This document shows positions 179 through 27,893 of a stretch of DNA of 45,959 bases, one piece after another. Numbering within the stretch: the stretch's first letter is position 1; every line of letters starts with the position of its first letter. Origin of the DNA: a virus; IMG/VR virus record IMGVR_UViG_3300021957_007082, positions 1-45,959 of that record. The stretch is one strand, 5' to 3'. The position numbers were made by a program, and so were the translations under genes. The notes below the pieces were generated by a model. That model was not told the origin of the DNA, made no database searches, and worked only from the letters and a program-made list of their open reading frames with translations.

Positions 179-3100
179 TTATTCTGGTTTTATTACTTTA
201 CCACCACAATCCATCTCAGTTTCACATTCACTAAGTTCAAATGAGTTAATTGTTATATCATCATCATTATTCAGTGAGAATGTTGAACCGTTTGGACCAT
301 ACTTAAACATATAACTTATAGTTGATTTACTACAAAAACTGTATATAACTTCACTACCATCTTCATTTATTTCACCTAATTTTTCACTTAAGTTAATTTC
401 TGTCTCACCTTCTACACAGTCGTTAAGGATGTAATATAAATCGTTTGAGTTCTTAGGATTAGTACTTACTCTTACCTCAATACAATTACAACCGCTTACA
501 TCCTCATCACCAAACGTACTTTGTATTGTTGTAGTTGAAACACACCCATTTGCGTCTGTAACCACAACATAGTAATAACCTTCAGGTAAATTACTAAATG
601 TTTGTGAAGGATTTCCAGATGTGACACCTGTAATAGTTGCCACCAATGTTCCACCACCTGTCGTATATGGTGAGGTTGTGTCCTCGTATAATCTATATGT
701 TTTATTCCATGTTCCACCCGCAGATGTAACAGTAATATCACCGTTAACACCTGTGGTAAAGGATGTCATTGTTGCCGTATCATCTAAAGGTTCAATTACG
801 GTTATTTGATAAGATTGTTCACAACCGTCTTTGTCTTTAATTGTAATTGTACTTTTTCCTGCTGATAGACCCGTATACGTTTTAGGGAAAGTTGTTGTAT
901 AACTTCCCGAACCTATTTTAGAACTATATGTTGCTCCGTTACCTCCTGTTGGATTCGACACTGTTATTTCACCGTCACTACCACCATGACAACTTACACT
1001 ACTTGTTGTAAATGTCGCGTTTGGGGCGGTCTTATTTAGTTGTGCACTTCCTGATCGAACACAGTTAGCACTATCTTTGACTCTAATCAAATAGATAGCG
1101 GAACTTAAAGTGGAAAAAGTATTACTCGCTTGGTAACTAAATCCATTATTTAAAGAATATGTGTATGATCCACTACCCCCACTTGCATTAATTACTATTT
1201 CACCATCATTATCTCCACTACATGAAGGGTGTGTTAATGTGGTAGTAAAACTAACCTGTGTTGGTACCGTTATTGTTTTTGTGTATGTTCTTGTACATCC
1301 ATCACCGTCTCTAACAGTGATAGTATGTGAACCACCACTTAAATTACTGTATGTTTTAGGGAATGTTGTAGAATAACTTCCCGAACCTATTTTAGAACTA
1401 TATGTTCCACCGTTTCCACCAATTGGGTTAGACACTGTTATTGAACCTGTACCACCATAACACGTAGGATTTGATGACGATACAGTTGCTGTGACATCAC
1501 TTTTTTGAAGAATTACAGTAACTTGATCAGAACAACCATTTTGATCTACCGCATAAAATGCATATCCACCTGTGGTTAAACCTGTGAATGTGAGATCTGT
1601 TGTTAATGTCCCATTCATTCTATATGTTAATGATCCTGTACCACCACTCGCTTGGAATGTTATTGAACCATCATTCGAGTTACGACACGATGGGTGAGTA
1701 ACACTTTTTGTAGTTACATTAACCACCGGTGGTTGTGTAATAACATATGTATAACCTTTAGTACATCCATCACCATCTTTTATTGTTACGGTATGTGAAC
1801 CTACACTTACGTCTGTGAATTCGTATTCGGGTGGTAATCCCGAATTAAAGTTTACGTAACTTTGACTATCTAATTTAACCTGATATATTCCTCCGTTTCC
1901 ACCTGTTGGACTCGATACTGTTATTGTACCTGTACCACCATTACACGATACATGTTCAAGTACTGCAGTAAATGAAGGGTCGGTTTTTGTTAATGTAACA
2001 CTCTTACTCGTAATACAGTTATTACTATCTTTAACATATGCCGTTCTTGTTCCTATACCAAGTCCTGTGAACGTACCTGACGTAAAATAATTAATACCGT
2101 TTATTGAGTATAATTTAGTTCCTGTACCACCAGTAGATGTGATTACAATTTCACCATCACTATTTCCACGACACGTCGGATGTGTTACCGATGTGGTTAT
2201 TACTAAGTTTTGTGGATTATTTAATACAATTTGATACTCTGTTTCACACTGATTATTGTCTCTAACATATATGTAATATGGTGTTGCTCCTGATTTACCC
2301 GTAAATGTAACTGCTTGAGTAAAATTAGTCCAATTACCACTTGCAAATTTGTATTGGTAAGTTCCTCCATTTCCACCCGTAATTGCAGATAACGTAATAT
2401 CACCATCACTACCGTTATGACAGTTAGGTGCATTAGAATAAATTGATGCCGTTACTTGACTTCTATTTAATGTGGTAGATTTATTCACCACACAACCATT
2501 ACTATCTTTAACGTATAACGTATAATTTCCATTTGAAAGGTTTGAAAACGTATTGGATGCTTGATAATTAGTACCGTCTTTACTATAAGTATAAGAACCA
2601 GTCCCACCACTACCTGTAACAACAATTTCACCGTCACTATCAAATCTACATGTTGGTATTGTGTTTGAAACAGATATACCCATCACTGCGTTTTGTGTTA
2701 TGGTTTGTGTGTATGTTTTTACACATCCTTCACCATCTTTAATGTATATGGTATATGTGCCAGGTACTAATGATGTATATTCTTCAATAGTGTTATTTGG
2801 TAGGTCTATATAGGTACCTAATTTATTAATTTTTACCTGATATGTTCCACCGTTTCCACCCGATGGATTTGCCACCGATATAGTACCATCACCAGCCCCA
2901 TTACATGTGACATTTGTAAATGACCACGTTAATGTAGGTGCTGATTTTGATAATGTTAAACTACTTGATCCTGTTGTTGTACATAAATTACTATCTCTAA
3001 CGTCTAATGTGTAATTTCCAGTTGTTAAACCTGTGAAGGTTCCCGAAGGACCCCACTGAAAACCATCTTTAGTGTATTCATACGTACCACTACCTCCCGT

Positions 3101-5446
3101 TGCCGTTATAACTATCTCACCATCCGAACCGTCCCAACATATTGGGTCAGTATGTGTTGATGTAAACGATACTTGAGTTGGTTCTGTTATTGTTACTGAG
3201 AATTCTCTTTCACAGAAACTCCCATCCTGTATTGTTATCGTGTATGTACCCCCAGACAAATTACTTATTGTACGAGTAGTCCCATCATCATCTTCAAATT
3301 CTCCATCATCAAATTTTATCTTATACGGACCACCATTACCACCACCAATTTGAGTTATTCTAATTTCACCCGAACTGAGTCCATTACATAATGTATTTGT
3401 TTTGGATAGTGATAAAGTTATTGCCGACTTAATTAGTACTACCGTTCTTGAACTTGTACACCCATTTTCGTCAGTTGCAACTAAATTGTAATTACCTTCC
3501 CCCAAATTTGTTTGGGAAAGATCTGTAATTGCCACACCATTTAACGTATATGTTTTGGTTCCTGTTCCCCCACCAACGGTGAAAGTAATTGTACCATCAG
3601 AATCACCATCACATGTTGGATCTGTATGAGTATCGGATATGGATATTGCTGATGGTTTTGTAATTGTTTTACTTATAGTACCTATTTCATCATTACTATC
3701 TTTTATGTAAATTGTGTATGTCCCTGAATCGAGATTTGAAAATGTCGTTGATGTTTGGTAATTAGTACCGTTAATTGAATATGTATATGGTGAATCACCT
3801 CCCGTAGTTGAGGTAACCTCAATACTACCATTCCTTAAGTTGTTACATGTAATATTGGTCACATTCGCAGTTCCCGAAACGGTTACATTAGTAATTGTAA
3901 TTGTGATAATTTTCTCAACAAATAAACCTCCTTGGTCTGTCGATCTAACCCTTATTGAATATGAATTTTTTGTTTCATAATCATAAATTTCATCACTTTT
4001 TAGTGATGCCCCACTTATTGAGAATGAACTGTTATTTGTGGATCCCGCACCATTAACTAATGTATATGTGAACGTATTATTTGCATCAGGATCTGTCGTT
4101 GATAGAGTACCTATTGTCGTTCCTGTAGCAACATTCTCATCAATTGATGAGTTACTTAACCCGATTAAAGTAGGTGTTTCATTTACATCTAAAACAGTAA
4201 TCGTAAAAGTATCCGTATATGTATTATTTCCACTATCCGTGACAGTGACTTCAATTCCATATGAATTTTTAACTTCGTAATTGAATACAATATCGTTTTT
4301 AAGAACACCACTACTTGACAATGCAAACGACGCGTTGTCGTTACCACTACCCGTAAGTGAGTAAGTAAATGTTTCACCACTGTCAACATCTAAACCAGAA
4401 AAGACACCAATTGTTGTCCCTGTTGCTGTGTTTTCTTTTTGTTCGTCATTACTTAATGTTAATCCGTATGGTGTTTCATTTAAGTCGATAATGTCAACCT
4501 CAATTTCTCTTGTATTATATAAACCACCATCATCAGTTGCTTTAACATATAATGTGTATAAACTTTTTACCTCGTGATTAAAAACTTGTGCATTAGATAA
4601 AACCTCATTAGTTAACGTAAATGAATTATTGTCGGGGTAATTCGCACTATCTGTAAATTCCCACGTAATGGTTCCACCCTCGGTATCGTCAGCAACTAAA
4701 CTACCAATAGTAGTTCCTGTTACAGTATTCTCTGTTTGACTAAAATTTGGTAATCTAATCCTTGGTGATGTATTTGTTGTTACGTCTACATCAAAGTCAC
4801 AATTAATTGTTGGTGACGGAGATGGACTCGGTGTAGGGGTTGGTAATGCCGTCGGTCTCGGAGTTGCACTAAACGTCGGTGAAGGACTTGGGCTCGGTGA
4901 TGGACTCGGTGACGGAGACGGACTTGGGCTCGGTGATGGGGATGGACTTGGGCTTGGTGTAGGTGATGGACTCGGTGTGGGAGTTGGAGTTGCAATATCA
5001 ATGTCAACATCGAAATCACAATTTGGTGTTGGAGTTGGTGACGGACTTGGGCTCGGTGACGGAGACGGACTCGGTGACGGAGACGGTGTAGGTGTAGGGT
5101 TAGGGGTTGAACTTGGGCTCGGTGATGGACTCGGACTTGGTGATGGGGATGGTGTAGGACTTGGACTTGCGGTTGGTGTAGGAGTTGAAGTTGGTAGAGC
5201 GGTTGGGAGTAATAGAGTATCCTCAATTAAACACGAGTCGTTATATAGTAATACCGAAACTACGTTATCTGGTAATTCTACCTGTACACCAGGTGAGTTA
5301 ACTAAATCGTTATATGTAACACCAGTTGCAGGTAATGAAGTACTAACTCTTGTGGCAATATTTGACGGACCTATTTGGTCATAATATATCGTATAGAGAC
5401 TATGTGATGTCCCCGAATTAATTAATATGTTGAATATTCTTGCCAT
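179..5446 (-). CDS. Giant tail adhesin: Ser/Pro stalk, 3 cadherin-like and about 14 SprB-type repeats
   Basis: This 1755-aa protein is a modular surface adhesin, probably a tail or baseplate fibre. Residues 1-80 are a small N-terminal domain that probably docks to the virion. Residues about 80-220 are almost pure SP/TP dipeptides with two NCDFDVD motifs. Residues about 225-525 hold three cadherin-like repeats ([20 protein letters not shown] and [10 protein letters not shown] starts; DLNETP, DVNETP linkers; acidic DD/DPD calcium-type positions). Residues about 530-1640 hold about 14 repeats of the SprB type (C-x-G-x-S-D-G-E-I ... GGTG-Y ... G-Y-T-V-DSNGC). The last 110 residues form a Cys-containing C-terminal cap. 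SprB repeats are known from Flavobacterium gliding adhesins, so the match suggests binding to, or mimicry of, a Bacteroidota surface. There is no signal peptide or membrane segment, as expected for a virion protein. It lies just after the other stalk protein and shares stalk DNA with it. Confidence 0.85.
560..3860 (-). repeat. Alternating A/B SprB-type repeat array within the 1755-aa adhesin gene
   Basis: About fourteen repeats of roughly 75-90 residues each start with a Cys and an S/N-D-G motif and end near D-x-x-x-C. From the second repeat onward two classes alternate without exception. Class A has a TGGTGTYxYSxNG core. Class B has an [10 protein letters not shown]-x-x-K core. The last two B repeats are nearly identical (both contain [10 protein letters not shown] and TTFPKTY), pointing to a recent duplication of an A-B pair. 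The final repeat lacks its first Cys. Confidence 0.8.
4795..5215 (-). repeat. Low-complexity Ser-Pro/Thr-Pro stalk coding region (short array)
   Basis: On the coding strand this is a hexamer-like degenerate repeat encoding SP and TP dipeptides, interrupted by two NCDFDVD motifs near 4987-5020 and 4780-4805. The peptide [14 protein letters not shown] encoded here also occurs in the neighbouring 2719-aa protein, with near-identical DNA (compare 4841-4885 with 7161-7205). Such arrays are prone to slippage and recombination. Confidence 0.85.
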
Positions 5447-5491: not shown

Positions 5492-8400
5492 TTAACAACC
5501 CGTAATGTTGTAACCTAAATTATTCATCGCACTTACAATTAAATCCAAATAATATTGTGGTGTACTTCCTGCAACCGTATCTTGAACACAACTAACTTCA
5601 GATTTATCACTTAATCCTGCAGTTCCATTGTAATAACCTGTTCCGTTAAACAACGCATCCATAAACGCTTGGTACTGTGGGTATGATTCATTTCCACTAC
5701 CATTTAAGGTATCCACTTGGAATATTATTCCTCTATGTGATGTTGGTGTGGTAGCGTTATCTAAATTAGTTCTTAAAAGTGCTATATCATTATTACCTGC
5801 TGTACTACCATTTGTCCAACCACTAACCGTTGGTGATTCTGCCTCATACGCACCATTACTTTCATCTGCGAATGCTAAATTCACCACATTATATGTTGGG
5901 TTGGATGGTTGAGTGGAAATCCAATTGATTGCTCTTTCATCATTTTTATTCGTTATTGTGACTCTTGAATTATATAAGTTAACATCATTATTGTAGAATG
6001 GTAATAAACAATTCTGTAAAAGACTATTCCTCATTGTTGTCAATGGACTTAAGGTTGAATTCATCGAACCTGAACTATCAAAGAATATGTTTATCTCTGT
6101 TTCAGTATTAACTACAATTGTTGGGGTTGGAGTTGGTGTGGGAGTTGTAGTTGGTTGTGGTTCAACTTCGTTCGCCGATCCATCAAAACTACAATCACAC
6201 AGAATATGTACATTAATTAATTTATTTAATACACTATTCCATTCTGTTACAATGACAATCGGATCATTATCCGAATCAATATATCTAATACCTGTATCAA
6301 ATAGTTTATTAGTTGATGTAGGTGTTAAAGTTCCATCTTTATGGTCAAAACTATTAACTTGAACACCAACAGGTGATACATATTCTCCAATACAACTTAT
6401 ATCATTACTATCTGTATATGATTTCACGTAAACCACACAATTATTATTATCGTACCACCACTCTTTACCTGTCTTAGAAACTCCTTGTGTTTCCGTACAG
6501 TAACCACCAAGGTCATTTATTGTTGGACCACTTTTCGATATATCAGTTATGACATATAAATTTTCAGGTATTTCCGTAGTACATTCTGTTGGACAATCTA
6601 TTGGATAGTCACCAGTAGTAATATCCACATCGAAATCACAATTAATTGTTGGTGTTGGAGATGGGGATGGACTCGGACTTGGTGAAGGACTTGGGCTCGG
6701 GCTTGGTGACGGAGACGGACTCGGGCTTGGTGTAGGTGTAGGACTCGCACTTGGTCTTGGAGTCGCACTAAACGTCGGAGACGGAGATGGACTCGGTGAT
6801 GGTGTAGGACTCGCACTTGGTTCTGGTGTCGAACTTGGACTTGGTGTTGGGGTTGGTGTAGCGATATCTATATCCACATCGAAATCACAGTTCGGAGTTG
6901 CCGATGGACTCGGTGATGGAGAAGGACTTGGTGTAGGACTCGCAGTTGGTTGTGGTGTTGGTACTGGTGTTGCACTTGGGCTTGGTGATGGACTTGGTGA
7001 TGGTGTAGGACTCGCACTTGGAGGTGGAGTTAAACTTGGGCTTGGTGTAGGTGTAGGGGTCGCAATGTCTATATCAACGTCAAAGTCACAATTCGGAGTT
7101 GCCGATGGACTCGGTGACGGACTTGGTGATGGTGATGGACTTGGGCTTGGTGTTGGGGTTGGTAATGCCGTCGGTCTTGGAGTCGCACTAAATGTCGGAG
7201 ACGGAGATGGACTCGGTGATGGAGTTGGACTTGCACTTGGTTCTGGTGTCGAACTTGGACTTGGTGTTGGAGTTGGAGTTGCAATATCAATATCAACGTC
7301 AAAGTCACAATTTGGTGTTGCTGATGGACTTGGGCTCGGACTTGGTGATGGTGTAGGACTTGCCGTCACACTTGGTGAAGGGGATGGGGAAGGAGTCGGT
7401 GATGATGTAGGTTGTGGTGTTGAACTTGGACTCGGTGTAGGAGTTGGTGTTGCAATATCTATATCCACATCAAAGTCACAGTTTGGTGTTGGGGATGGTG
7501 ATGGTGTAGGACTCGCACTTGGAGGTGGAGTTAAACTCGGACTTGGTGATGGTGTAGGACTTGCCGTCACACTTGGTGATGGACTTGGGCTCGGTGAAGG
7601 GGATGGAGTTGGACTCGCACTTGGTTCTGGTGTAGGGGTTGCAATATTAACATCAACATCGAAATCACAATTAATTGTTGGTGTAGGAGATGGGGATGGA
7701 CTCGGTGAAGGAGTTGGAAATTGTGTAGCATCAGGTGTTGCCGGTGGTGTCGCTGTTGGGTCAGGTGTCGGTGCTGGTGTTGCCGAAGGTGATGGGGTTG
7801 GAGTTGGTGTTGCAATATCAATGTCAACATCGAAATCACAGTTTGGTGTGGGTGTAGGACTCGCTGTTGTACTCGGTGATGGTGACGGAGATGGGGATGG
7901 ACTCGGTGATGGTGTAGGTGTAGGGTCAGGTGTTGCCGACAAACTTGGTGACGGAGATGGGCTTGGTGTAGGACTCGCACTTGGTTCTGGTGTAGGAGTC
8001 GCAATATTAATATCAATGTCGAAATCACAGTTCGGAGTTGCCGATGGACTTGGACTTGGAGTAGGAGTCGAACTTGGACTTGGCGATGGTGATGGGTTAG
8101 GAGTTGCCGATAAACTTGGTGAAGGACTTGGGCTCGGTGTAGGACTCGCACTTGGTTCTGGTGTAGGAGTCGCAATATTAATATCAATGTCGAAATCACA
8201 ATTTGCAGTTGGTGATGGACTCGGTGATGGACTCGGTGATGGAGACGGACTTGGAGTAGGAGTCGGTGTTGCAATATCTATATCCACATCGAAATCACAA
8301 TTCGCGGTTACTGATGGGGTTGGACTTGGGCTCGGTGAAGGGGATGGAGTTGGACTCGCACTTGGTTCTGGTGTAGGAGTCGCAATATTAATATCAATGT

Positions 8401-11400
8401 CGAAATCACAATTTGCAGTTACTGATGGTGTTGGACTTGGTGATGGTGTAGGAGTTGGTGTTGCAATATCTATATCCACATCGAAATCACAGTTCGCGGT
8501 TACCGATGGTGTTGGAGTTGGTGACGGAGATGGGCTTGGTGTAGGACTCGCACTTGGTTCTGGTGTAGGAGTCGCAATATTAACATCAACGTCAAAGTCA
8601 CAATTTGCAGTTGGTGATGGACTCGGTGATGGTGTAGGACTTGCCGTCACACTTGGTGATGGACTTGGGCTCGGTTCAGGGGTACTACTCGGTGCTGGTG
8701 TTGCACTCGGATTAGGAGTTACAGTTGGGTTAGGAGTACTACTTGGTTCTGGTGTTGAACTTGGTAATGGTGTTGAACTTAGTGATGGTGTAGGTGTTGG
8801 TTCAGGGGTACTGCTTGGTGCTGGTGTTGCACTCGGATTAGGGGTACTGCTTGGTTGTGGTGTTGAACTCGGATTAGGGGTACTGCTTGGTGCTGGTGAT
8901 GCAGTTGGGTTAGGTGTACTACTTGGTTCTGGTGTTGAACTCGGTAGTGGAGTTGCAGTTTGTTGTGGTGTTTCGGTTGGGAGTAATGTAGGGTTGGGGG
9001 TACTGCTTGGTGCTGGTGATACAGTTGGAAGTGGTGTTGGGTTAGGTGTCACAGTTGGGACTGGTGTTGGTAACAAAAGACAGTCAATGTCGTATATTGG
9101 TCGATTTAAGTCCTCAATAGATGGTATTACCGCACAATCCAATTGGTCTTGGAAGTATTGTTGTGCACTTAATGATAAGTCTTCAAATGTGTTCTGTGGG
9201 TAATGAATTAAAATACAATCTTCATCATCTCCATTATATAATATGACTTGTGGGTATTGTACGTTAGAATCTTGTGTAACTGTTAAATGATAAAACAATT
9301 CACGTTCACAATAATCCAAATCTAAACTTGTAATCTCAATAGGAAACCCTAATTCATTTATAAGGTAGTCACCCTTTATAAAGTAATCCTTATCGTAAGT
9401 ACAACATGGGTCAACACCTTGTTCTAATGGTCTTACAAATAAATCTTCGGGATACTTTTCAGTGAATTCCCATTGACCACTTACTTTAGTTAATACTCTT
9501 ACCTTTGTGTTCGGTAAAATTTTAAAACGTTCATTAATGACGTTCATTTTAATTGTACCTAAACAATCAATATTATCTACGGTAACCTCCGCGTAGTTCT
9601 GACCGAAGGAAAATCCGTTTAATACAGAGTCTCTAAAATCTTCGGAACTAAATGGACATGTCAGGTATTCACCCGAAAGTAATCTATCACCATCTCTAAC
9701 ATCTTGTGCCTTTGTTTGTATGATATCACCATTGTTGATCAACGTCTGTATATCCTGCCACTTGGTTGATGATGTTATATTTACTGAATTATTTGTTATT
9801 TCTAAAACATAACTATCTTGTTTTATTCCGTAATCAAACGTTGGACGATATTGTACTTTAGGTTGTATAGTATACCCTATGTAGTTGTCACAATATGTTA
9901 AACCACTCTGTACCTCTATTGGAAGGTCACCATTATCAGGATTTTCACCAGGTAAATAAGATTCTACCGAATATTCAATGTAATGACTTTTTGGTTCTGT
10001 TATATCTTCATTAATCGGATCCCACTCTAATTTTTGTTGTAGACCTTCTATTCTTACTTTTTGATCACAATTCGCAGCATCTGTAATTGATATATCAATA
10101 ATATCGTGTTCTCTAACGTCATTTACAACAAACGTACAACCCGATACATGATTAACAGTATATGATGGTGGTTCTGAAATACCCTCATTATAATCACCAA
10201 GACAATTAATGAATATATTGACGGGCCAATCCGTATTATATGGTGGACATTCTGTACATGGGTCTCCATCGTCAACAGTATCCTCATTTCCGAATGTTAT
10301 ACCAGAAACCTCAAAATAAACATCTGAAACCAACACACACTCATCAGGGTCTTCAGGTAGTGTGTACATTGTACCATCACCATAAACCTTAACTTTAGGA
10401 TCACACTTAGTGGTACCTGTTAAGTAAACCGAATCGAAATAAAAATCAAACGTACTCGGATCTAAACAATCAAAATCAACAGGTGTATATGTCACATAAG
10501 GTGATCCCGTTGCACTATATAATTGTAAGTTATAAACGTAGGGTACAATTGCAATTTTTTGAATACCATCCGTATCTGTAAAAATCCTATAATCTAACAG
10601 AGGTGCAAATTCGTAGTCATACGTTTCGGTCGATTTTGAAACACCATTAACATCATTAGTTGTATCACTAAGTTCGTTTGTGAATGATGTAGATATTGAT
10701 GTGTTACCACTTACTTTAAATTCTTCCCACCCCGCATGATTGTTTATTATACCACCAATACCATCGTATTTAGTTCTTTTGTAATATGTCTTATTGATTT
10801 GATTATCAATGATGTCTTTTATTTCATCAATCCAAAGACATTCTAAAATTTCTAATTGAGGTTCTAAATAACATTTGAAATCACATAATAGGGGTAAGTG
10901 TACCGTTTTATCAAATTTAGTACCACCACTCGTTATGGATTCTTGAGATAACGTCGTTATTCCTGAAAATTCAAGAAACTCAACTGTTTGTGCACAATTA
11001 TTATTATCAAAGTAGACATTTTCAATGTCAGTACATTCTGATGTTATTTCATATGGATCAAATAAACCCGCATGATTGTGGTTAGTAATAATTTGGTCAC
11101 ATGTTGACCCCGAAACTGTTTGTGTTTCACCACTAATAACAATATCAGTATCTCCAGTAAATGTTAAACCGTTAAAATCTATGTGAAGTGTATATGTTAC
11201 ACCACTAACAACCGTTAGTCCTCTAAAATTATCATGGTCACCTAAAATTGTCTCTAAATCTTCCTCAATTACATCTTCAAAATCAGGAAATAGGTTTTGT
11301 GTGAATTCGTTAGGTAAACATGGTTTTTCATATTCAAATTTAGATCTACCAATTCTACCGTTTTCAATAATATTACCACCAGTCCACAGTGTTGTGGCCG

Positions 11401-13651
11401 GAACAAATTGTTCAATTACTTGTGTCCAATAAGGACTCATTCGGTTTATAAATTCACTAACCGTTGGTAAACTATATGGGTTAGTTACTTTTGATAGGTA
11501 ACCTTCATATATGTCCTCTAACTGTATATAATTCTTTTTATACCGAATTATATGTGTGTTACGTATTTGTTCGTTTAAAACGTGTTCTGTGTACTCAGCA
11601 AAGGTGAAACCTGTCTGTGGATCTAACGATGCACGACCAAAGGTAACTTTTAGTTCTCTACTTTGTCTATATATGTCATTGTCAATACCTTGTGATGATG
11701 AAAGATATATTTGAATATTTTTTCTATTAAGTGTTCTTGAATCTTCATCTTCTAAAACCTCAGTCTTATCGTTATCAACCTCGTTGTGTAATTCATAACC
11801 ATAATCTAACCCCGAAAACTGTCTATATAAGTCAAAATAGTCCTCACCATAGGTGAAATCTTTATTTTTTGTTTTTATAACTTTAGGATTAGAAGTTAAA
11901 TCAGATCTGTCCGAATCTAATTCGGTTGATGATCTGTGTTCTAATGTGATTTCATACCAACCAGCACCTTTTTGGAAAAAAGTATCTTGATTTTCACTTT
12001 CAATACCCTTTATATCACCATATTGTGCTCTATCCGCCCTAAGGTTAACTGGATATTCTTCATCATTGTAAAGTGTGGACCCCGTTGTAGTTACACTGTT
12101 GTAACTAAAACCCGTTGTTGATAGTGAAGCCACTTTAAATGTTTTATCCCCTTGAATAAGGTCATAAACATCACTGTCAATATCACTCGTAGTCTTTTTT
12201 ACATTATCGTAACGGTAAACATATTCGTTAATATTAATTAGTGGTTCAGGTGCCCCAATGAATCTTAGAAAGAATTCAATTGCCTTTCTCGTACCTTTTG
12301 ATTTATAAATGTGTGCAAGATTGACAAGTAGTCGTCTATAAAACTCGGTCTCCGCTTCCACCATATTCATACCAACACCAATACCATCGTACTGACTCTC
12401 AACTCTTGTATAAAGTGAGTCTTGTAAATTCTTTTCGTCGAATAAATTAAGTGTATCTAAACCAAGTGTGTTAGATAAATTCTTTAGAAGTACATCAGGT
12501 AAGTTGTTAATACGATCGTAACTCACATTTCTCATGTAAGCTATATTATCAATAAACTTTTTAACCTTATCAAAACTATGCCCAAGTAATTGAGTTGCTG
12601 AGTCCATTCTTCTGTCCTCAGTATCGAATTCATATAAAGATGCGGTTGTTAAAAATCTTGAAACTACATTTGATTTATAATTATCAATTCGTTCACCGAG
12701 TGTACTTAACTCTTCAACATAACTTATGTACGCACTCCCCGATATCTTTAAATTCCATTTATCTCTATATAGTGGCCACGAGACTTGATTAGTTTTTAAC
12801 TCTGTTTTTGAACCATCTAAACTATCTTCAGGTGCCCTAAACTTTGCTGTATATTTTACTTTTGATTCACGATTTAATAGTATCGACTCTAAATCATCTA
12901 ATCCCTCAAAAAATTCCTCAACAACATTATTGTTAGGTCTAATTAAGAAACTTTCACCATACGTTGTCAACCCACCAAAAGGATCACCTTTTACTGTTAA
13001 ACTAATTAAACCGTCAATATTAACCTCAGTATAACTTATAATCCCATATGAAATAGAATCAATTTCTAAATTGTACCTTTTAAAAGAATCATAAAAACTC
13101 TTTATAATGTTTTCAGTTTCAGGTATTGTATTACTCTTTGGTTTTTCAAGAATAATATCTAACGGATTGAATACTTTACTTTTTTCAATCTGAAATGAAG
13201 TGACGTTAGTCTTTTTATTATAAACTGAATTTAGTGCTGTGAATACTGTGGACGCAACAGGTGTCTCTTTATCAACATAGAACCCCGCAGGGAACTTACC
13301 TATAATTCTTGATACCGATACCTGTAATCTTTGTTTTAGTGAACCAAATAAAGATTTACCCCCATCCTCCTTAGAGTTTCTAAAACTTACTTTTTCTTTT
13401 CTTCTTTCGGTTGTGGTTGTGGAAACATTATTTTCAATCGGTTCCTCTTCTTTAATATCTTCAAATGTTAGATACTCGGAAAATGGTTTTGATTGAAATG
13501 ACTTTCTATCTCTTTGAGGTATGTTTTTATCCAATGCAAAGTTCGCAGAGGTCAGCTGACTTGTACCATCGGTAATTTGTTTACCGACCAAGTTGTCATT
13601 AAAGGTTTCCCTTCCACTCGCCGCTTGACTTGGAACTTTTCTTTTCGCCAT
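5492..13651 (-). CDS. Baseplate-anchored stalk protein with C-terminal von Willebrand A domain
   Basis: This 2719-aa protein has three parts. Residues 1 to about 1520 are a structural region. It includes a patch near residue 450 ([18 protein letters not shown]) typical of P2 gpI-like tail proteins, which sit at the baseplate and carry receptor-binding parts; the rest of this region is beta-rich and not recognised. Residues about 1525-2335 are a Ser/Pro/Thr-Pro stalk with 13 copies of an NCDFDVDI(D/N)I motif. After a Cys-containing linker, residues about 2515-2719 form a von Willebrand A-type domain: hydrophobic strand INIFF, then D2525-S-S2527-G-S2529-M, a complete DxSxS metal-ion site. VWA domains bind protein or glycan ligands through a bound divalent metal, so this is a plausible receptor-binding tip. 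The ATG overlaps the stop of the preceding gene by one base (TAATG). The stalk has higher G+C than its surroundings. Baseplate attachment is inferred; stalk and VWA are read directly. Confidence 0.8.
6618..9075 (-). repeat. Ser-Pro/Thr-Pro stalk array with 13 NCDFDVDI-type punctuation motifs
   Basis: About 2.4 kb of degenerate tandem repeat encode SP, TP, SSTP and PSAS dipeptide-rich stalk. The promoter-distal three quarters are punctuated by 13 copies of the motif N-C-D-F-D-(V/I)-D-(V/I)-(D/N)-I-ATPTP, at irregular spacing of roughly 20-80 residues. Two sub-classes exist: [13 protein letters not shown] and (V/I)[12 protein letters not shown]. Larger blocks recur, for instance TFSATPRP followed by TALP or SASP. 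Each motif has one Cys and an alternating Asp/hydrophobic strand, so disulphide or calcium cross-linking between chains is possible. The absence of TTA, CTA and TCA codons leaves a long, meaningless open frame on the opposite strand. Confidence 0.85.
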
Positions 13652-22087: not shown

Positions 22088-23920
22088 TTAAAATGTAGTG
22101 GAAGAGAGAGTTTTTATTCTAACTTTAATATCTTTCTTAGGGAATCTAATTTGAAAGATTTGGTTATTTTTCATATAGACTGTAGAATCTGATTGTTGTA
22201 TCTCCTTAGTTGCTTCACTAACATACCCTTGAGATACTTCTGCCATTGAATATTCACCTTCTGTTTTACCGAAGACTCTAAGGTCAACAACATTAACAAC
22301 ACCCACAACATCACCTATGGTTTTCTTTAACTCACCAACAAATAATGGATCACCCATCTTTCTACCTTCAATTGTGAAGTAGTTTGTTGCAGATTCTATT
22401 ACGTCTTTTAAAACATCAGTTTGTGTTGTGTTTTTATCAATAACTAAATCAATTTCTAAACCTAAATCTATTACTTCACCACTAACAATATCCAAATAAT
22501 CATTTATCATTCTATAGTTAGATAAATAATTCAAAATGTTATTTTTTAGTGTTGTTGAAACTGTGTCAGTTAAACTACCATCACTATTATATGAAAGTAA
22601 TTTAATTCTGATTTTGTTATCTTCCTCCATCACATTAACCTTTGCAGGTGCTCCGTATGTTGATGGCATTGTTTCTATTAATGACTTATAATCGTTAAGT
22701 GTAACCGCTCTATTTTGTGCTGAAAAGTTATATCCAACCATATTTCTAATTTCTTCGATTGTTGGTTGATCAGCTCCACCAACAGCGGGAGTTACATTTG
22801 CAACTCTCAATGATTGTACTACTTGATTATTTACATTGGTCAACGGACCGCTTACATTAAATTCCACATTATCTACACTTGTGATGACATTAACACCTAA
22901 ATTCGTGTTTTTACCACCTCCAATTCTGTATTTTATGAAAATCGTACTATTTGCTCTTGGTGTTGCACCTAACGATAAGTTATTTAAATAAGACCCAAGA
23001 CCTACTTTTAACGACCCGTTATTGAACGCATCTAAGTTATCTAATGGATCTATTGTTCCTGAACCAAAAGTCACTGACATGTAACCTTCTGGTGTATATT
23101 CACTAATGAATTTATTTGTAACCCTTTTGTTGTCACCAGCAATAAAATTCTTTTTATCTGACGACGATGTTGGGTTTGGGATGAAAACTTTGTCTTCCAT
23201 TAATGAATTTACCTCATACCATTTATTTGATGAGTTTGCAAATTCTGAAGAAGATGGGTTTGATGTAAAGTTTGTCCCTTCTTTATGTATAACTGATACC
23301 ACACCTAAAACATTTTGTTCGGGTAAGTATAATTTTAAAAATGGTTTTTGATCTTGTGAGGTAATTACTCTTCTATATACCCTTGACACACCGTTTACTA
23401 CCGCCTCACGTTTAGTTATTGTGTATGATATTAATTTATTATTACTATCAAAATTCGGTATTTTTAATCTATTTGGTTCCCCCTTATCATTAAATGGGTT
23501 TGAGAAATCCACATCTTCAATAGTTTCAAATGTTTGACCACCACCCGATACTTGAGCACCTGATCTAACAATTCCTAAGTATCTTTCATCTTCCTTATCC
23601 CCTCTTACAGGAACATTAATTGATAAGTCACATAATGATACTGATGGTCGATTACCTGGTATTCTCATACCGTATGTTTTTGCAATGTGAAATAAAGATT
23701 TTCTTTGTTGTGCGAAATCTAACATAGTCTCTTGCCAAACCCTATCAATGTGATAGTGTAGGTTATCACCAATTGCGGCATTTAAATCTAACAACACCGA
23801 AAATATCGACGCGTCGTTTGTATTCTTAACTAAATCAGGATAGTACTCTTTACTTAAATTAACAAGTTCTTCTCTTAGTCCTGCAAAATCTCTTGTTGAA
23901 TATGATATTTTCTTCGCCAT
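22088..23920 (-). CDS. gp6: Baseplate wedge protein, T4 gp6 / baseplate J family (610 aa)
   Basis: This is the wedge protein that forms the ring of the contractile-tail baseplate and changes conformation on host contact. The family signature is clear. An FGSG motif near residue 285 is followed by a TIFIKYRIGGGKNTNLG-type stretch, and then, near residue 380, GGADQPTIEEIRNM followed by AQNRAVTLNDYKSLI, diagnostic of gp6/gp47/J proteins. Its length is close to T4 gp6 (660 aa). N-terminal residues 1-80 (YSTRDFAGLREELVNLSKEY, DLNAAIGDNLHYHIDRVWQE) match the usual start. It begins one base after the stop of the gp25-like gene, the neighbour with which gp6 interacts in the wedge. Confidence 0.93.
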   Translation of the reverse strand: MAKKISYSTRDFAGLREELVNLSKEYYPDLVKNTNDASIFSVLLDLNAAIGDNLHYHIDRVWQETMLDFAQQRKSLFHIAKTYGMRIPGNRPSVSLCDLSINVPVRGDKEDERYLGIVRSGAQVSGGGQTFETIEDVDFSNPFNDKGEPNRLKIPNFDSNNKLISYTITKREAVVNGVSRVYRRVITSQDQKPFLKLYLPEQNVLGVVSVIHKEGTNFTSNPSSSEFANSSNKWYEVNSLMEDKVFIPNPTSSSDKKNFIAGDNKRVTNKFISEYTPEGYMSVTFGSGTIDPLDNLDAFNNGSLKVGLGSYLNNLSLGATPRANSTIFIKYRIGGGKNTNLGVNVITSVDNVEFNVSGPLTNVNNQVVQSLRVANVTPAVGGADQPTIEEIRNMVGYNFSAQNRAVTLNDYKSLIETMPSTYGAPAKVNVMEEDNKIRIKLLSYNSDGSLTDTVSTTLKNNILNYLSNYRMINDYLDIVSGEVIDLGLEIDLVIDKNTTQTDVLKDVIESATNYFTIEGRKMGDPLFVGELKKTIGDVVGVVNVVDLRVFGKTEGEYSMAEVSQGYVSEATKEIQQSDSTVYMKNNQIFQIRFPKKDIKVRIKTLSSTTF

Positions 23921-23921
23921 T

Positions 23922-24374
23922 TTATATATTAATTATAACAAAATCTGATGAGCTAAACGCACCATTATTAACCGTATAGTCTATTTTAACTTTTGCGGTA
24001 TACGGTTTAGTTGATGAGTCTCCCAATCTGAATAACCTATCATCTGTTTCTTCATCAACAGTTGTTACTGGATCTGTATCATCTTCTGCAGATTGTACCT
24101 TTATTGAATTTATATCTAAGTTTGGTAAGTATTTCTTACAACCTTCACGTATTTCTTCTTCTATTAAATTAAAAGTGACCATATCATTTTGGTCGAATAT
24201 ATATTCATATATTCTTGTACCAAACTCAGGTAAATAATATCTACTACCTTTCTTAGTTAAAATAAGGTGTATAAGGTTAGCCCTCACCTCTTTTTCGGGT
24301 GTAGTGGTTAACTTTAAATAATCTCCTGTTGTACTTTCTCTAAAAGGAAAGTCAATTCCATAGGTTACTGCCAT
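23922..24374 (-). CDS. gp25: Baseplate wedge protein, T4 gp25 / GPW family (150 aa)
   Basis: gp25 is a small baseplate wedge component that joins the inner baseplate to the sheath and helps initiate sheath assembly. The family pattern is present: GIDFPF at the N-terminus, then VRANLIHLILTKKGSRYYLP, EFGTRIYEYIFD and an EEEIREGCKKYLPNL helix. The frame is open to an ATG at 24392, but I choose the ATG at 24374 (MAVTYGIDFPF) because gp25 proteins start close to this motif and the extra six residues (MFIFIS) are atypical. The gene follows the terminator at 24413-24438 and begins a structural unit with gp6 downstream. Confidence 0.92.
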   Translation of the reverse strand: MAVTYGIDFPFRESTTGDYLKLTTTPEKEVRANLIHLILTKKGSRYYLPEFGTRIYEYIFDQNDMVTFNLIEEEIREGCKKYLPNLDINSIKVQSAEDDTDPVTTVDEETDDRLFRLGDSSTKPYTAKVKIDYTVNNGAFSSSDFVIINI

Positions 24375-24378
24375 ACTA

Positions 24379-24385
24379 ATAAATA
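24379..24385 (-). promoter_or_regulatory. TATTTAT motif, candidate late-promoter element
   Basis: The coding strand reads ATATTTATTAGTATGG; the motif ends four bases before the preferred gp25 start at 24374. It lies between the terminator of the replication unit and the first baseplate wedge gene, the place where a new transcript would have to begin. The very short spacing would give an almost leaderless message. Confidence 0.35.
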
Positions 24386-24412
24386 TAAACATTACTAAAA
24401 TGGTGTTAAATA

Positions 24413-24461: not shown

Positions 24462-26906
24462 CTAAGAACCACATCCTTCACAATCAAATGGTGAATCATC
24501 GGGTCTAATATCCTGATTAGTTACCATTTTCAACTCTTTATTTTCACTTAAAAGTGAATTAGATGTTGGTATAGGGTTTTCTGTTACTTCTTTTTGTGGT
24601 TCAACCTCAGGTGTTTTCTTTTTAGATGTATTCACACCTAAACCTTTAAGTGGGTCAACCGCCGATCTTGTTCTTAAGTAATACATACCTGTTTTTAAAC
24701 CTAACTTCCACCCATGTAGGTGTGCTGCCAATAGTTTTGCTTTAGTAGCATTACTAATAAAAAGATTTAGTGATTGTGACTGATCAATAAATACTGATCT
24801 ATTGGCTGCCATATTCAAAAGTCTCTTTTGTGACATTTCCCATACTGTTTTAAAGACTTCTTTAATTTCTGTTGGGATTTCAGGTATATTTTGTACTGAC
24901 CCATTTTCCATAATTAATTTATCTTTAATGTCGTCACCCCATAAACCAACGGACATAAGTTCATTAACCAAATGTTTATTAATAACAATAAATTCACCCC
25001 CCAATGTTCTTCTTGAATACAGGTTCGTTGTGAATGGTTCAAATGCTTCGTTATTATTAAGGATCTGTGCGGTAGATGCGGTTGGCATCGGTGCAACTAA
25101 TAGGGAATTTCTAACACCAAACTTAATCACTTCTTTTCTAAGTGATGACCAGTCCCATCTACCAGATAGATCTTCATCGTTCAATCCCCACATTTGATAT
25201 TGGAAGATACCTTTCTCAATTGGTGATTCACTAATTGTTTCATATGGTCCATGTTTTTCAGCAAGATCTTTAGACGATGTCATTGCCGCAAAATATAACG
25301 TCTCAAAAATATCAGTCTGAAGAGTATTCCCTTCTTCTGACTCAAAAGGTATTTTTAACATACAAAAGACATCTGCCAATCCTTGAACACCAAGACCAAC
25401 AGGTCTATGACGAAAGTTAGAGTTTTTTGTTTCTTTTGTTGGATAAAAATTTAAATTAATTACATTATTTAAGTTTTTAACCACTTGATAAACATAGTCG
25501 TATAATAACTCGTGACTAAACTCACCATCAATAATATATTTTGGTAATGCAATAGATGCTAAGTTACACACAGCCTGTTCTTCAGGTGACGAATATTCAA
25601 TAATCTCAGTACAAAGATTAGAAGACTTGATTGTCCCTAAGTTTTGTTGATTTGATTTATAGTTAGCCGCGTCTTTATATAACATATATGGTGTACCCGT
25701 CTCAATCTGAGCAGTCAAGATAGCATCCATTAATTTTCTTGCCTTTAAAACTCTACGACCTTTCCCCTCACTTTCATATTTTTCATACAATTCAGTAAAG
25801 TTTTTGTTATCGGGTGAATCATAAACATCGGAGAGTCCAGGTGCCTCATCAGGTGAAAATAGTGTCCAATCACCATCCTCTTGTACTCTTTGCATGAATA
25901 AATCAGGTGTCCACATTGCAAGAAATAAATCCCTTGCTCTCATCTCTTCTTTACCGTGATTTTTTCTTAGGTCAATGAATTCAAAGACATCAGCATGCCA
26001 TGGTTCAAGGTACACAGCGAAAGAACCTTTTCTTTTACCACCTTGATTAATCCATCTTGCAACTTCGTTATACGTTTTCATCATAGGAAGTAAACCATCA
26101 GACTCACCACCAGTTCCTTTAATATAAGAACCCTTTGCTCTTACATCGTGAACGTGTAGTCCAATACCACCAGCCCACTTAGATATATTTGCAACGTCTT
26201 GAATAGTATCAAATAAACCGTTGATATCATCACCTTTGTTTCCAATTAGGAAACATGAGGACATTTGTGGTCTACGAGTACCCGCATTAAACAATGTTGG
26301 TGTTGCGTGAGTGTAAAAGTGTTGTGACAGATCATCATAGATTCTTAGTCCCATTTCAATATCACCATCACAAATACCCATTGCAACTCTCATATACATA
26401 TATTGTGGTCTCTCAACTATACGTTCACCAATCTTAAGTAAATAAGATCTCTCCAAAGTTTTAAACCCAAAGTAGTCAAAGTCAAAATCTCTTTCCTGTA
26501 CAATTGCACCATCAATAACCGCTCTATTCTTCTTAACAAAATTAAAAAGTTCATCAGATATCAAAGAAGATTCTTGTCCTGTTCTCGGTTCTATAAATGA
26601 ATACAATTCCTTAATAGATTGTGAGAATTTCTTTGGTGTTGTTTTGTGTAAGTTAGTTACTGCTAAACGTCCCGCTAACTTTGCATAGTCAGGATGTGTA
26701 GTGGTCATTGACGCTGCCGTCTCAGCGGCCAACGTATCTAATTCAGTTGAAGATATACCATCATATATACCTTGTGTGACTTTCAAAGTAATATATGTTG
26801 GGTCTACATAATCTAAATTTAAATCAGAACACAGCGAGGAAATTCTTCTTGTGATCTTATCATATCTCATTTCCTCTAAGGAACCGTCTCTTTTTTTAAC
26901 TTTCAT
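24462..26906 (-). CDS. nrdA: Class Ia ribonucleotide reductase, large (alpha) subunit
   Basis: NrdA reduces ribonucleoside diphosphates to deoxy forms, supplying dNTPs for phage replication, together with the NrdB radical subunit. Residues 1-90 are an ATP-cone allosteric domain (KRDGSLEEMRYDKITRRI). The catalytic cysteines are all present: SSC near residue 217, NLCTE near residue 430 and AVCNLASI near residue 444, corresponding to E. coli C225, C439 and C462. The radical-transfer Tyr pair is seen in GMYYLRTRSA near residue 738. The C-terminal redox tail ends in C809-E-G-C812, which is re-reduced by thioredoxin or glutaredoxin. At 814 residues it is slightly longer than typical because of a polar linker before the tail. 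The gene begins 12 bases after nrdB, so the order is nrdB-nrdA, and a terminator follows. No intein or frame break is seen. Confidence 0.97.
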   Translation of the reverse strand: MKVKKRDGSLEEMRYDKITRRISSLCSDLNLDYVDPTYITLKVTQGIYDGISSTELDTLAAETAASMTTTHPDYAKLAGRLAVTNLHKTTPKKFSQSIKELYSFIEPRTGQESSLISDELFNFVKKNRAVIDGAIVQERDFDFDYFGFKTLERSYLLKIGERIVERPQYMYMRVAMGICDGDIEMGLRIYDDLSQHFYTHATPTLFNAGTRRPQMSSCFLIGNKGDDINGLFDTIQDVANISKWAGGIGLHVHDVRAKGSYIKGTGGESDGLLPMMKTYNEVARWINQGGKRKGSFAVYLEPWHADVFEFIDLRKNHGKEEMRARDLFLAMWTPDLFMQRVQEDGDWTLFSPDEAPGLSDVYDSPDNKNFTELYEKYESEGKGRRVLKARKLMDAILTAQIETGTPYMLYKDAANYKSNQQNLGTIKSSNLCTEIIEYSSPEEQAVCNLASIALPKYIIDGEFSHELLYDYVYQVVKNLNNVINLNFYPTKETKNSNFRHRPVGLGVQGLADVFCMLKIPFESEEGNTLQTDIFETLYFAAMTSSKDLAEKHGPYETISESPIEKGIFQYQMWGLNDEDLSGRWDWSSLRKEVIKFGVRNSLLVAPMPTASTAQILNNNEAFEPFTTNLYSRRTLGGEFIVINKHLVNELMSVGLWGDDIKDKLIMENGSVQNIPEIPTEIKEVFKTVWEMSQKRLLNMAANRSVFIDQSQSLNLFISNATKAKLLAAHLHGWKLGLKTGMYYLRTRSAVDPLKGLGVNTSKKKTPEVEPQKEVTENPIPTSNSLLSENKELKMVTNQDIRPDDSPFDCEGCGS

Positions 26907-26918
26907 ATCTTATATATT

Positions 26919-27893
26919 TTAAAAATCCATTTCACCAAATGCAGAGTCTAAATCTTCATCTCCGTCGGTATTAACACCCGCCTTTTGATATTCAGCAACT
27001 CTCTTTTCAAAGAAATTAGTTTTTCCTTGTAATGCAATGTTTTGCATAAAATCAAATGGGTTCTCAGTATTAAACTTCTTTTCAATACCCAACGAATCTA
27101 ATAATCTGTCAGTAACGAATTCTAAATATTGTTCCATCAAGTCAGCATTCATACCAATTAATCTCACAGGTAATGCCTCAAGTATAAATTCTTTCTCAAT
27201 CTTTAAAGCTGATAAGATTATTTCTTCAATTCTTCCTTCAGGTAGTTTATTTTCAATGTGATTGTTATATAAGTGACATGCAAAATCACAGTGTAACCCT
27301 TCATCTCTTGAAATTAATTCATTGGAGAATGTTAGACCTGGCATTAAACCACGTTTCTTTAACCAAAATATTGAACAGAATGATCCTGAGAAGAATATAC
27401 CCTCTACCGCTGCGAACGCAATAAGTCTTTCAGCAAATGAATCAGATTCAATCCATTTAAGTGCCCATTCCGCTTTCTTTTGAATTGCGGGTATAGTTTC
27501 AATTGCGTTGAACAATCTATCTTGTTCTTGAGTATCCTTAATTAAGGAGTCAATTAATAACGAATAAGTCTCCGAGTGAATATTTTCCATTGCAATTTGA
27601 AAACCATAGAAGAACTTCGCTTCGGTGTATTGTACATCATTAATAAAGTTCTCAGCGAGATTTTCATTAACGATACCATCAGACGCCGCAAAAAACGCCA
27701 ATACGTGTTTTACGAAATGTCTCTCATCATCATTTAATTTATTAGTCCAATCACTTACATCTTGTTGTAAGTCAATTTCTTCAGCAGTCCAAAAACTTGC
27801 TTCTTGTTGTTTATAGTACTTCCAAATATCATTATGTGTTATTGGGAAAAGGACAAAACGTCCTGCATTTTCTTGTAAAATTTTTTCTGTCAT
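26919..27893 (-). CDS. nrdB: Class Ia ribonucleotide reductase, small (beta) subunit
   Basis: NrdB holds the di-iron centre that makes and stores the tyrosyl radical for NrdA. Ligands and radical site are visible: D in [12 protein letters not shown]-x-x-H-x-x-x-Y in ENIHSETYS near residue 103 (the Tyr equals E. coli Y122, so this is a radical-bearing Ia type rather than a Tyr-less variant), E in the [10 protein letters not shown] helix and E-x-x-H in RDEGLHCDF near residue 198. The C-terminal acidic tail ending in GEMDF is the usual NrdA-binding peptide. The 324-aa length is normal. The gene lies 15 bases after the helicase gene and 12 before nrdA, placing nucleotide supply and fork proteins in one transcript. 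Confidence 0.96.

What the first reader, a model, noticed from the sequence alone, without database searches (positions are those of the whole stretch)
5492..13651. A baseplate-type protein fused through an 800-residue Ser/Pro stalk to a von Willebrand A domain
The sequence shows one uninterrupted frame with a P2 gpI-like KGT patch near residue 450, a long SP/TP stalk, and a C-terminal domain with an intact DxSxS metal-site motif (D2525, S2527, S2529). VWA domains are well known as metal-dependent ligand binders in adhesins and pili. A VWA tip on a baseplate-anchored phage stalk would be an unusual receptor-binding design, and the NCDFDVDI motifs would be potential metal or disulphide cross-links along it.
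Basis: partly seen in the sequence, partly recalled or inferred. Interest (0 to 1): 0.8.

Follow-up and report, generated by a model that had tools for sequence, protein, structure and literature searches.

The report
Phage baseplate protein with VWA-like tip
An uncultured phage, probably of marine flavobacteria, carries a baseplate protein extended by a long Ser/Pro/Thr-rich stalk that ends in a VWA-like (adhesin-type) domain, and that domain turns out to be a widespread, previously unlabelled tip module that phages have attached to many different virion-type proteins.

Summary
On the minus strand, 5492-13651 is one 2719-codon frame with KGT at residue 452, an 808-residue Ser/Pro/Thr-rich stalk with 13 NCDFD motifs, and DSSGS at 2525.

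The N-terminal ~835 residues are a conserved baseplate protein. At least 96 viral contigs encode it, it lies in a gp25/baseplate-J operon, it has a counterpart in the cultured Flavobacterium phage immuto (gp109), and its KGT block aligns in register with P2 gpI.

The C-terminal 206 residues model confidently as an alpha/beta domain (pLDDT 89). It matches viral proteins named VWFA and, weakly but specifically, cellular VWA profiles. DxSGS is invariant in 49/49 relatives. The loop-3 Asp is D2596 (47/49). A loop-2 Thr is not conserved; an invariant Glu (E2572) lies nearby, so this is a divergent MIDAS-like site.

The domain occurs in about 70 distinct proteins, within 10 residues of the C-terminus in 54 of 69. 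It was attached to this baseplate protein at least twice (one origin rejected, AU p=0.0035); in the window's lineage it sits exactly where relatives stop.

Best reading: a mobile, probably metal-dependent, binding tip. Ligand, metal and virion location are untested. VWA domains in phage and phage-tail-like fibres are known, so this is a new variant.

The parts
5492..13651 (-). Whole gene, 2719 aa: baseplate-type N-terminus, Ser/Pro/Thr stalk, subterminal domain, VWA-like tip
   Evidence: same architecture in L001
11147..13651 (-). Conserved N-terminal baseplate part, residues 1-835
   Evidence: at least 96 IMG/VR relatives; alignment A3; counterpart immuto gp109
12152..12694 (-). gpI-like segment, residues 320-500, with KGT at 12290-12298
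   Evidence: hhalign to P2 gpI-type profile in register at KGT, 7.8% against at most 0.8% in 60 shuffles
6644..9067 (-). Ser/Pro/Thr-rich stalk, residues 1529-2336
   Evidence: 71% S+P+T; diverged DNA-level repeats
6620..8605 (-). Span holding the 13 NCDFD[VI]D motifs, residues 1683-2344
6167..6619 (-). Subterminal domain, residues 2345-2495; in relatives without the VWA the protein ends about 10 residues after its VHILCDC motif
6113..6166 (-). Thr/Pro linker, residues 2496-2513, at the fusion point
5495..6112 (-). VWA-like domain, residues 2514-2719
   Evidence: AlphaFold2 pLDDT 89, pTM 0.87; BFVD matches to VWFA proteins; profile match to cellular VWA
6065..6079 (-). DSSGS, MIDAS loop 1 (D2525, S2527, S2529)
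   Evidence: 49/49 conserved
5861..5866 (-). D2596-E2597, proposed MIDAS loop-3 acidic pair after the third strand
   Evidence: D 47/49, E 49/49; strand 75-82 of the model ends just before it
5936..5938 (-). E2572, invariant acidic residue in the region where canonical VWA has the loop-2 Thr
   Evidence: 49/49
179..5446 (-). Neighbouring fibre-type gene: anchor domain, the same stalk motifs, cadherin and SprB repeats
   Evidence: Pfam; anchor homologues
22088..23920 (-). Baseplate J / gp6-type wedge gene of the same operon
   Evidence: Pfam Baseplate_J; immuto gp112 baseplate wedge protein E 4e-41
23922..24392 (-). gp25/gpW-type baseplate gene
   Evidence: BLAST to immuto gp113 'baseplate assembly protein' E 1e-11

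Best explanation
The gene encodes a structural protein of a contractile-tail phage. The first ~835 residues build it into the baseplate wedge as the gpI-type component (position inferred; homology shown). The Ser/Pro/Thr stalk carries a C-terminal VWA-like domain outward (inferred). The VWA-like domain acts as a ligand-binding tip, probably through a divalent metal held by DxSxS plus D2596/E2597 (and perhaps E2572), and helps the virion hold a surface polymer or protein of its host (inferred). Shown by sequence: the domain is a mobile C-terminal module, attached to this baseplate protein at least twice and to many other virion-type proteins.
For: Baseplate part: operon with baseplate J and gp25-type genes; HMM E 1.2e-6 to immuto gp109, which lies in immuto's baseplate operon; KGT block in register with gpI. 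VWA-like fold: pLDDT 89; BFVD match E 1.7e-6 to a 'VWFA domain-containing protein', with 16 of the top 50 matches carrying VWA names; cellular VWA profile 16% against at most 0.3% for GDSL, response regulator, gp7, gpI and 30 shuffles. Tip role: within 10 aa of the C-terminus in 54 of 69 distinct proteins with a complete 3' end; added exactly at the ancestral end; two independent fusions, AU p=0.0035; also appended to a homologue of a Cellulophaga phage virion structural protein. Neighbouring gene is adhesin-like (cadherin, SprB). Precedents: Bt phage 0305phi8-36 gp164 (PMC2147016) and eCIS tail fibres (PMC12923769).
Against: No Pfam or PDB-sequence match to VWA for any member tested. Foldseek against the PDB gave no match below 1e-3, and its list mixes Rossmann-like folds. 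A loop-2 Thr is not conserved. The tip is not hypervariable (Ka/Ks 0.18) and its motifs are shared by phages of presumably different hosts, which could mean a conserved partner rather than a host receptor. No virion proteomics or binding data were found for these proteins. The N-terminal model is poor (pLDDT 54).
Confidence: 0.55

Rival explanations
1. The VWA-like domain is a docking module inside the virion: it binds another tail or fibre protein of the same phage (a connector), not a host receptor.
For: The domain is well conserved (Ka/Ks 0.18, strongly conserved motifs such as LLPFYNND and invariant Y47, V51). VWA domains serve as protein-protein adaptors in other viruses, for example next to AAA ATPases (PMC7911831).
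Against: It is attached to many unrelated proteins in contractile-tail phages and in phages with the Cellulophaga-type structural protein, with no shared partner gene identified; it sits at the extreme C-terminus, often after long stalks.
Confidence: 0.27
2. The domain is not a VWA but another Rossmann-like fold (flavodoxin-like, strand order 2-1-3-4-5) whose DxSGS motif does something else, such as an esterase-type or purely structural role.
For: PDB fold matches are weak and mixed, including PAF acetylhydrolase TM 0.49 and a response regulator. The model shows five strands, one fewer than canonical VWA.
Against: The profile match is specific to VWA and in register on DxSxS; GDSL and response-regulator profiles score at most 0.2%. 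BFVD matches are rich in VWFA names. No catalytic His is invariant.
Confidence: 0.15
3. The stalk and tip are a recombining, nearly neutral appendage or an assembly by-product of repetitive DNA, without a function of their own.
For: Low-complexity repeats; stalk length varies widely between relatives; repeats are prone to misassembly.
Against: Purifying selection on the tip (Ka/Ks 0.18) and on the stalk (0.21); the frame is kept over 2719 codons and in an independent contig; the tip recurs in about 70 proteins.
Confidence: 0.03

Closest known systems
Bacillus thuringiensis phage 0305phi8-36 gp164 (central VWA domain in a baseplate/fibre gene)
   Same: VWA domain swapped into a gene of the baseplate/fibre region of a large phage (PMC2147016)
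   Different: There the domain is central and was recognised as a bacterial VWA domain; here it is C-terminal, divergent and on a gpI-like baseplate protein
VWA domains in eCIS tail fibres (eBAP4 group)
   Same: VWA domain on fibres of phage-tail-like particles, in a network of swapped binding domains (PMC12923769)
   Different: Those are Pfam-detected VWA domains on eCIS fibres; the phage family here scores in no VWA model of Pfam
VWFA domain-containing protein of Virus NIOZ-UU157 (A0A7S9SU38) and A0A516LFG0
   Same: Best fold matches to the tip (E 1.7e-6 and 3.8e-14)
   Different: Only 18% and 27% identity; other architectures
P2 gpI / T4 gp7 wedge proteins
   Same: KGT block and helix in register with gpI; operon with baseplate J and gp25-type genes
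   Different: Sequence profile match weak; no detectable gp7 match; here extended by about 1900 residues
Flavobacterium phage immuto gp109 (cultured)
   Same: Homologous N-terminal part, baseplate operon, same KGT segment
   Different: 1265 aa; no Pfam or PHROG family and no annotation as a fibre or VWA protein

Membership tests
VWA domain (Pfam PF00092 and relatives) | Score above the family cut-off of a VWA model | tested here: not met
   0 Pfam families for the window domain and none of 16 members match VWA; PF00092 search of the window negative
VWA domain (Pfam PF00092 and relatives) | Rossmann-like alpha/beta fold with VWA topology | tested here: inconclusive
   Confident alpha/beta model; viral VWFA matches but PDB matches weak and mixed; coordinates not available to check strand order
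VWA domain (Pfam PF00092 and relatives) | Profile similarity to cellular VWA above controls | tested here: met
   16% probability, in register on DxSxS, against at most 0.3% for GDSL, response regulator, gp7, gpI and 30 shuffles
MIDAS metal site | DxSxS in loop 1 | tested here: met
   49/49
MIDAS metal site | Loop-2 Thr | tested here: not met
   No column in residues 61-80 of the domain exceeds 63% S/T; E2572 invariant nearby
MIDAS metal site | Loop-3 Asp | tested here: met
   D2596 in 47/49, after the third strand of the model; D2647 ('VDT') is not conserved, 6/49
MIDAS metal site | Bound divalent cation | not testable with these tools
   needs a structure or binding assay
Tail_P2_I / gp7-type wedge protein | Match to family model PF09684 or PF21428 | tested here: not met
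   one of 34 relatives hits Gp7_helical at 0.016 only
Tail_P2_I / gp7-type wedge protein | KGT segment homologous to gpI | tested here: met
   7.8% in register against at most 0.8% in 60 shuffles
Tail_P2_I / gp7-type wedge protein | Position in a baseplate operon with gpJ and gp25/gpW | tested here: met
Tail_P2_I / gp7-type wedge protein | Fold of the wedge trifurcation | tested here: inconclusive
   Model pLDDT 54; no significant fold match
Phage receptor-binding protein | Binding to the host surface | not testable with these tools
   only position and modularity known

The most novel reading that the evidence does not exclude
A previously unnamed family of phage VWA-like domains with a divergent MIDAS (an invariant Glu in place of a conserved Thr) is a general, metal-dependent adhesion tip that phages of Bacteroidota and others transfer between baseplate, fibre and other tail proteins, including direct grafting onto a wedge protein so that the wedge itself carries the receptor-binding tip.
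Probability: 0.35. Interest if true: 0.72.

Novelty: new variant of a known kind. Interest (0 to 1): 0.52.

Why it matters
Receptor-binding modules of phages of Bacteroidota are little known. This defines a domain family that Pfam does not recognise but that can be found by sequence, shows that it is swapped as a C-terminal unit between unrelated virion-type proteins, and gives exact residues (D2525, S2527, S2529, E2572, D2596, E2597) for a test of metal-dependent adsorption. It also shows a core baseplate protein that itself carries a long stalk and tip, instead of docking a separate fibre.

Tried and rejected
Pfam, PHROGs and PDB-sequence searches of whole protein, tip and N-terminus: no informative match. 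tblastn of tip and N-terminus against cultured phages: none. AlphaFold of residues 1-835: poor model, fold search uninformative; one low-ranked match (rank 5, E 0.11) is to a 1031-residue chain of a Klebsiella phage baseplate and is not relied on. T4 gp7 profile: no match. Two scans for diverse gpI relatives returned only near-copies of P2 gpI. VDT at 2646-2648 considered as the third MIDAS loop and rejected: D2647 is kept in 6/49. Esterase (GDSL) reading rejected for lack of profile match and of an invariant His. The 712-aa ORF antisense to the stalk (7065-9203, +) rejected as an artefact of repetitive codons.

Full report
OBSERVATION. The gene lies on the minus strand, 13651 down to 5492, one frame of 2719 codons. 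KGT is at 452, 13 NCDFD motifs lie between 1683 and 2344, and DSSGS starts at 2525. The stalk (1529-2336, 808 residues) is 33% P, 23% S and 16% T. At the DNA level it is an array of diverged repeats. The window is a 46-kb IMG/VR virus fragment.

N-TERMINUS. The first 840 residues have at least 96 relatives in IMG/VR, 80 of which were fetched. Among genes with a complete 3' end the part after residue ~840 differs greatly: two in L004 and L016 end at 987 aa, many others carry Thr/Pro or Ser/Pro stalks, and among the fetched loci only the L001 contig carries the VWA-like tip; many loci are cut off at the 3' end and cannot be judged. The operon includes a Baseplate_J protein that matches the 'baseplate wedge protein' of Flavobacterium phage immuto (E 4e-41) and a gp25-type gene. 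A profile of 34 N-termini (A3) finds immuto gp109, four genes after gp113 in immuto's baseplate operon, at E 1.2e-6; Microcystis phage Mel-JY01 has a BLAST match at residues 432-477, E 5e-5. Both cultured proteins carry the segment as 'TKGT'. Profile comparison with P2 gpI-type proteins aligns residues 439-478 in register on KGT, 7.8% for the 320-500 sub-profile against at most 0.8% in 60 column shuffles. This is weak in itself but specific. The curated models Tail_P2_I and Gp7_helical do not match and the AlphaFold model is poor, so I call it gpI-like, not a proven gpI or gp7.

TIP. The last 206 residues have no Pfam match. With 16 relatives AlphaFold2 gives pLDDT 89 and pTM 0.87, an alpha/beta domain. 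Against BFVD the best match is an unnamed viral protein (E 3.8e-14) and the second is a 'VWFA domain-containing protein' of Virus NIOZ-UU157 (E 1.7e-6); 16 of the first 50 have VWA names. Against the PDB nothing passes 1e-3; integrin beta3 and factor B appear among other Rossmann-like folds. A profile of 49 tips (A4) aligns to 35 cellular VWA domains at 16%, in register on DxSxS, against at most 0.3% for GDSL hydrolases, response regulators, gp7, gpI and 30 shuffled VWA profiles. D2525, S2527, G2528, S2529, E2572 and E2597 are invariant in 49/49, D2596 in 47/49. No loop-2 Thr is conserved. I conclude a divergent VWA-like domain with an atypical, probably metal-binding, site.

DISTRIBUTION AND ORIGIN. 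Two scans of viral contigs and one of genome contigs gave 70 distinct protein sequences with the tip, a few of them truncated views of the same gene, nearly all on viral contigs. Hosts of the module include gpI-like baseplate proteins (window, L001, L121, L125), ~370-aa fibre-region genes, SprB-type genes, and a virion structural protein family (phrog_14478 in L183; the same N-terminal type by eye in L010, L014, L131, L107). In L183, from a Flavobacteriaceae genome assembly, the first 1425 residues are 57% identical to the 'virion structural protein' of Cellulophaga phage phi13:2 and the VWA follows. The tip ends within 10 residues of the C-terminus in 54 of 69 proteins with a complete 3' end. 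In a tree of 49 tips the four baseplate fusions form two clades, and a single clade is rejected, AU p=0.0035. Relatives without the tip stop ~10 residues after 'VHILCDC(S/T)FEG'; in the window and L001 the linker and the VWA begin exactly there. Between window and L001, Ka/Ks is 0.04-0.10 in the baseplate part, 0.21 in the stalk, 0.29 in the subterminal domain and 0.18 in the tip; synonymous sites in the stalk are near saturation, so those values are rough.

MECHANISM. Shown: homology of the N-terminus to a baseplate-operon protein; modular, repeated acquisition of a C-terminal VWA-like domain; conservation of a MIDAS-like acidic cluster. Inferred: the N-terminus is in the wedge; the stalk projects; the tip binds a ligand through a metal. 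The main rival is an intra-virion docking role.

KNOWN RELATIVES. A VWA domain swapped into a fibre-region gene was described for Bt phage 0305phi8-36 gp164 (PMC2147016), and VWA domains occur in eCIS tail fibres (PMC12923769). In archaeal viruses VWA proteins sit beside AAA ATPases or CobS and are a different kind (PMC7911831, PMC8651126). The kind is therefore known; the divergent family, its spread and its grafting onto a baseplate core protein are the new parts. A host in Flavobacteriia is likely but not shown; a Microcystis phage shares the baseplate proteins.

Noticed in passing
7065-9203 (+): A 712-aa open frame antisense to the Ser/Pro stalk, rich in Gly/Leu/Val/Asp repeats; most likely an artefact of the repetitive codons.
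   Followed up: partly
179-5446, and L001:10667-16804, L002:11802-13388, L105:4741-6630: A ~85-aa N-terminal domain ('[21 protein letters not shown]') is shared by several fibre-type genes of these phages, as if a common attachment module carries different stalks and tips.
   Followed up: partly
L001:17511-18647: L001 has a second VWA-like copy in a separate 378-aa gene downstream; the window contig ends before the corresponding place.
   Followed up: yes
L023:3704-11350: The VWA-like domain is split by an insertion of about 200 residues (matches at 2089-2174 and 2383-2490).
   Followed up: no
L018:1871-11233: A 3120-aa protein with the tip inside it begins with a stretch that looks by eye like a Hint/intein start; Pfam gave no match.
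   Followed up: partly
L184:3363-7298: A 1311-aa protein in a Verrucomicrobia assembly carries a distant copy of the domain; possibly a prophage.
   Followed up: no
24462-27893: Two genes that look by eye like the large and small ribonucleotide reductase subunits sit directly upstream of the baseplate genes.
   Followed up: no
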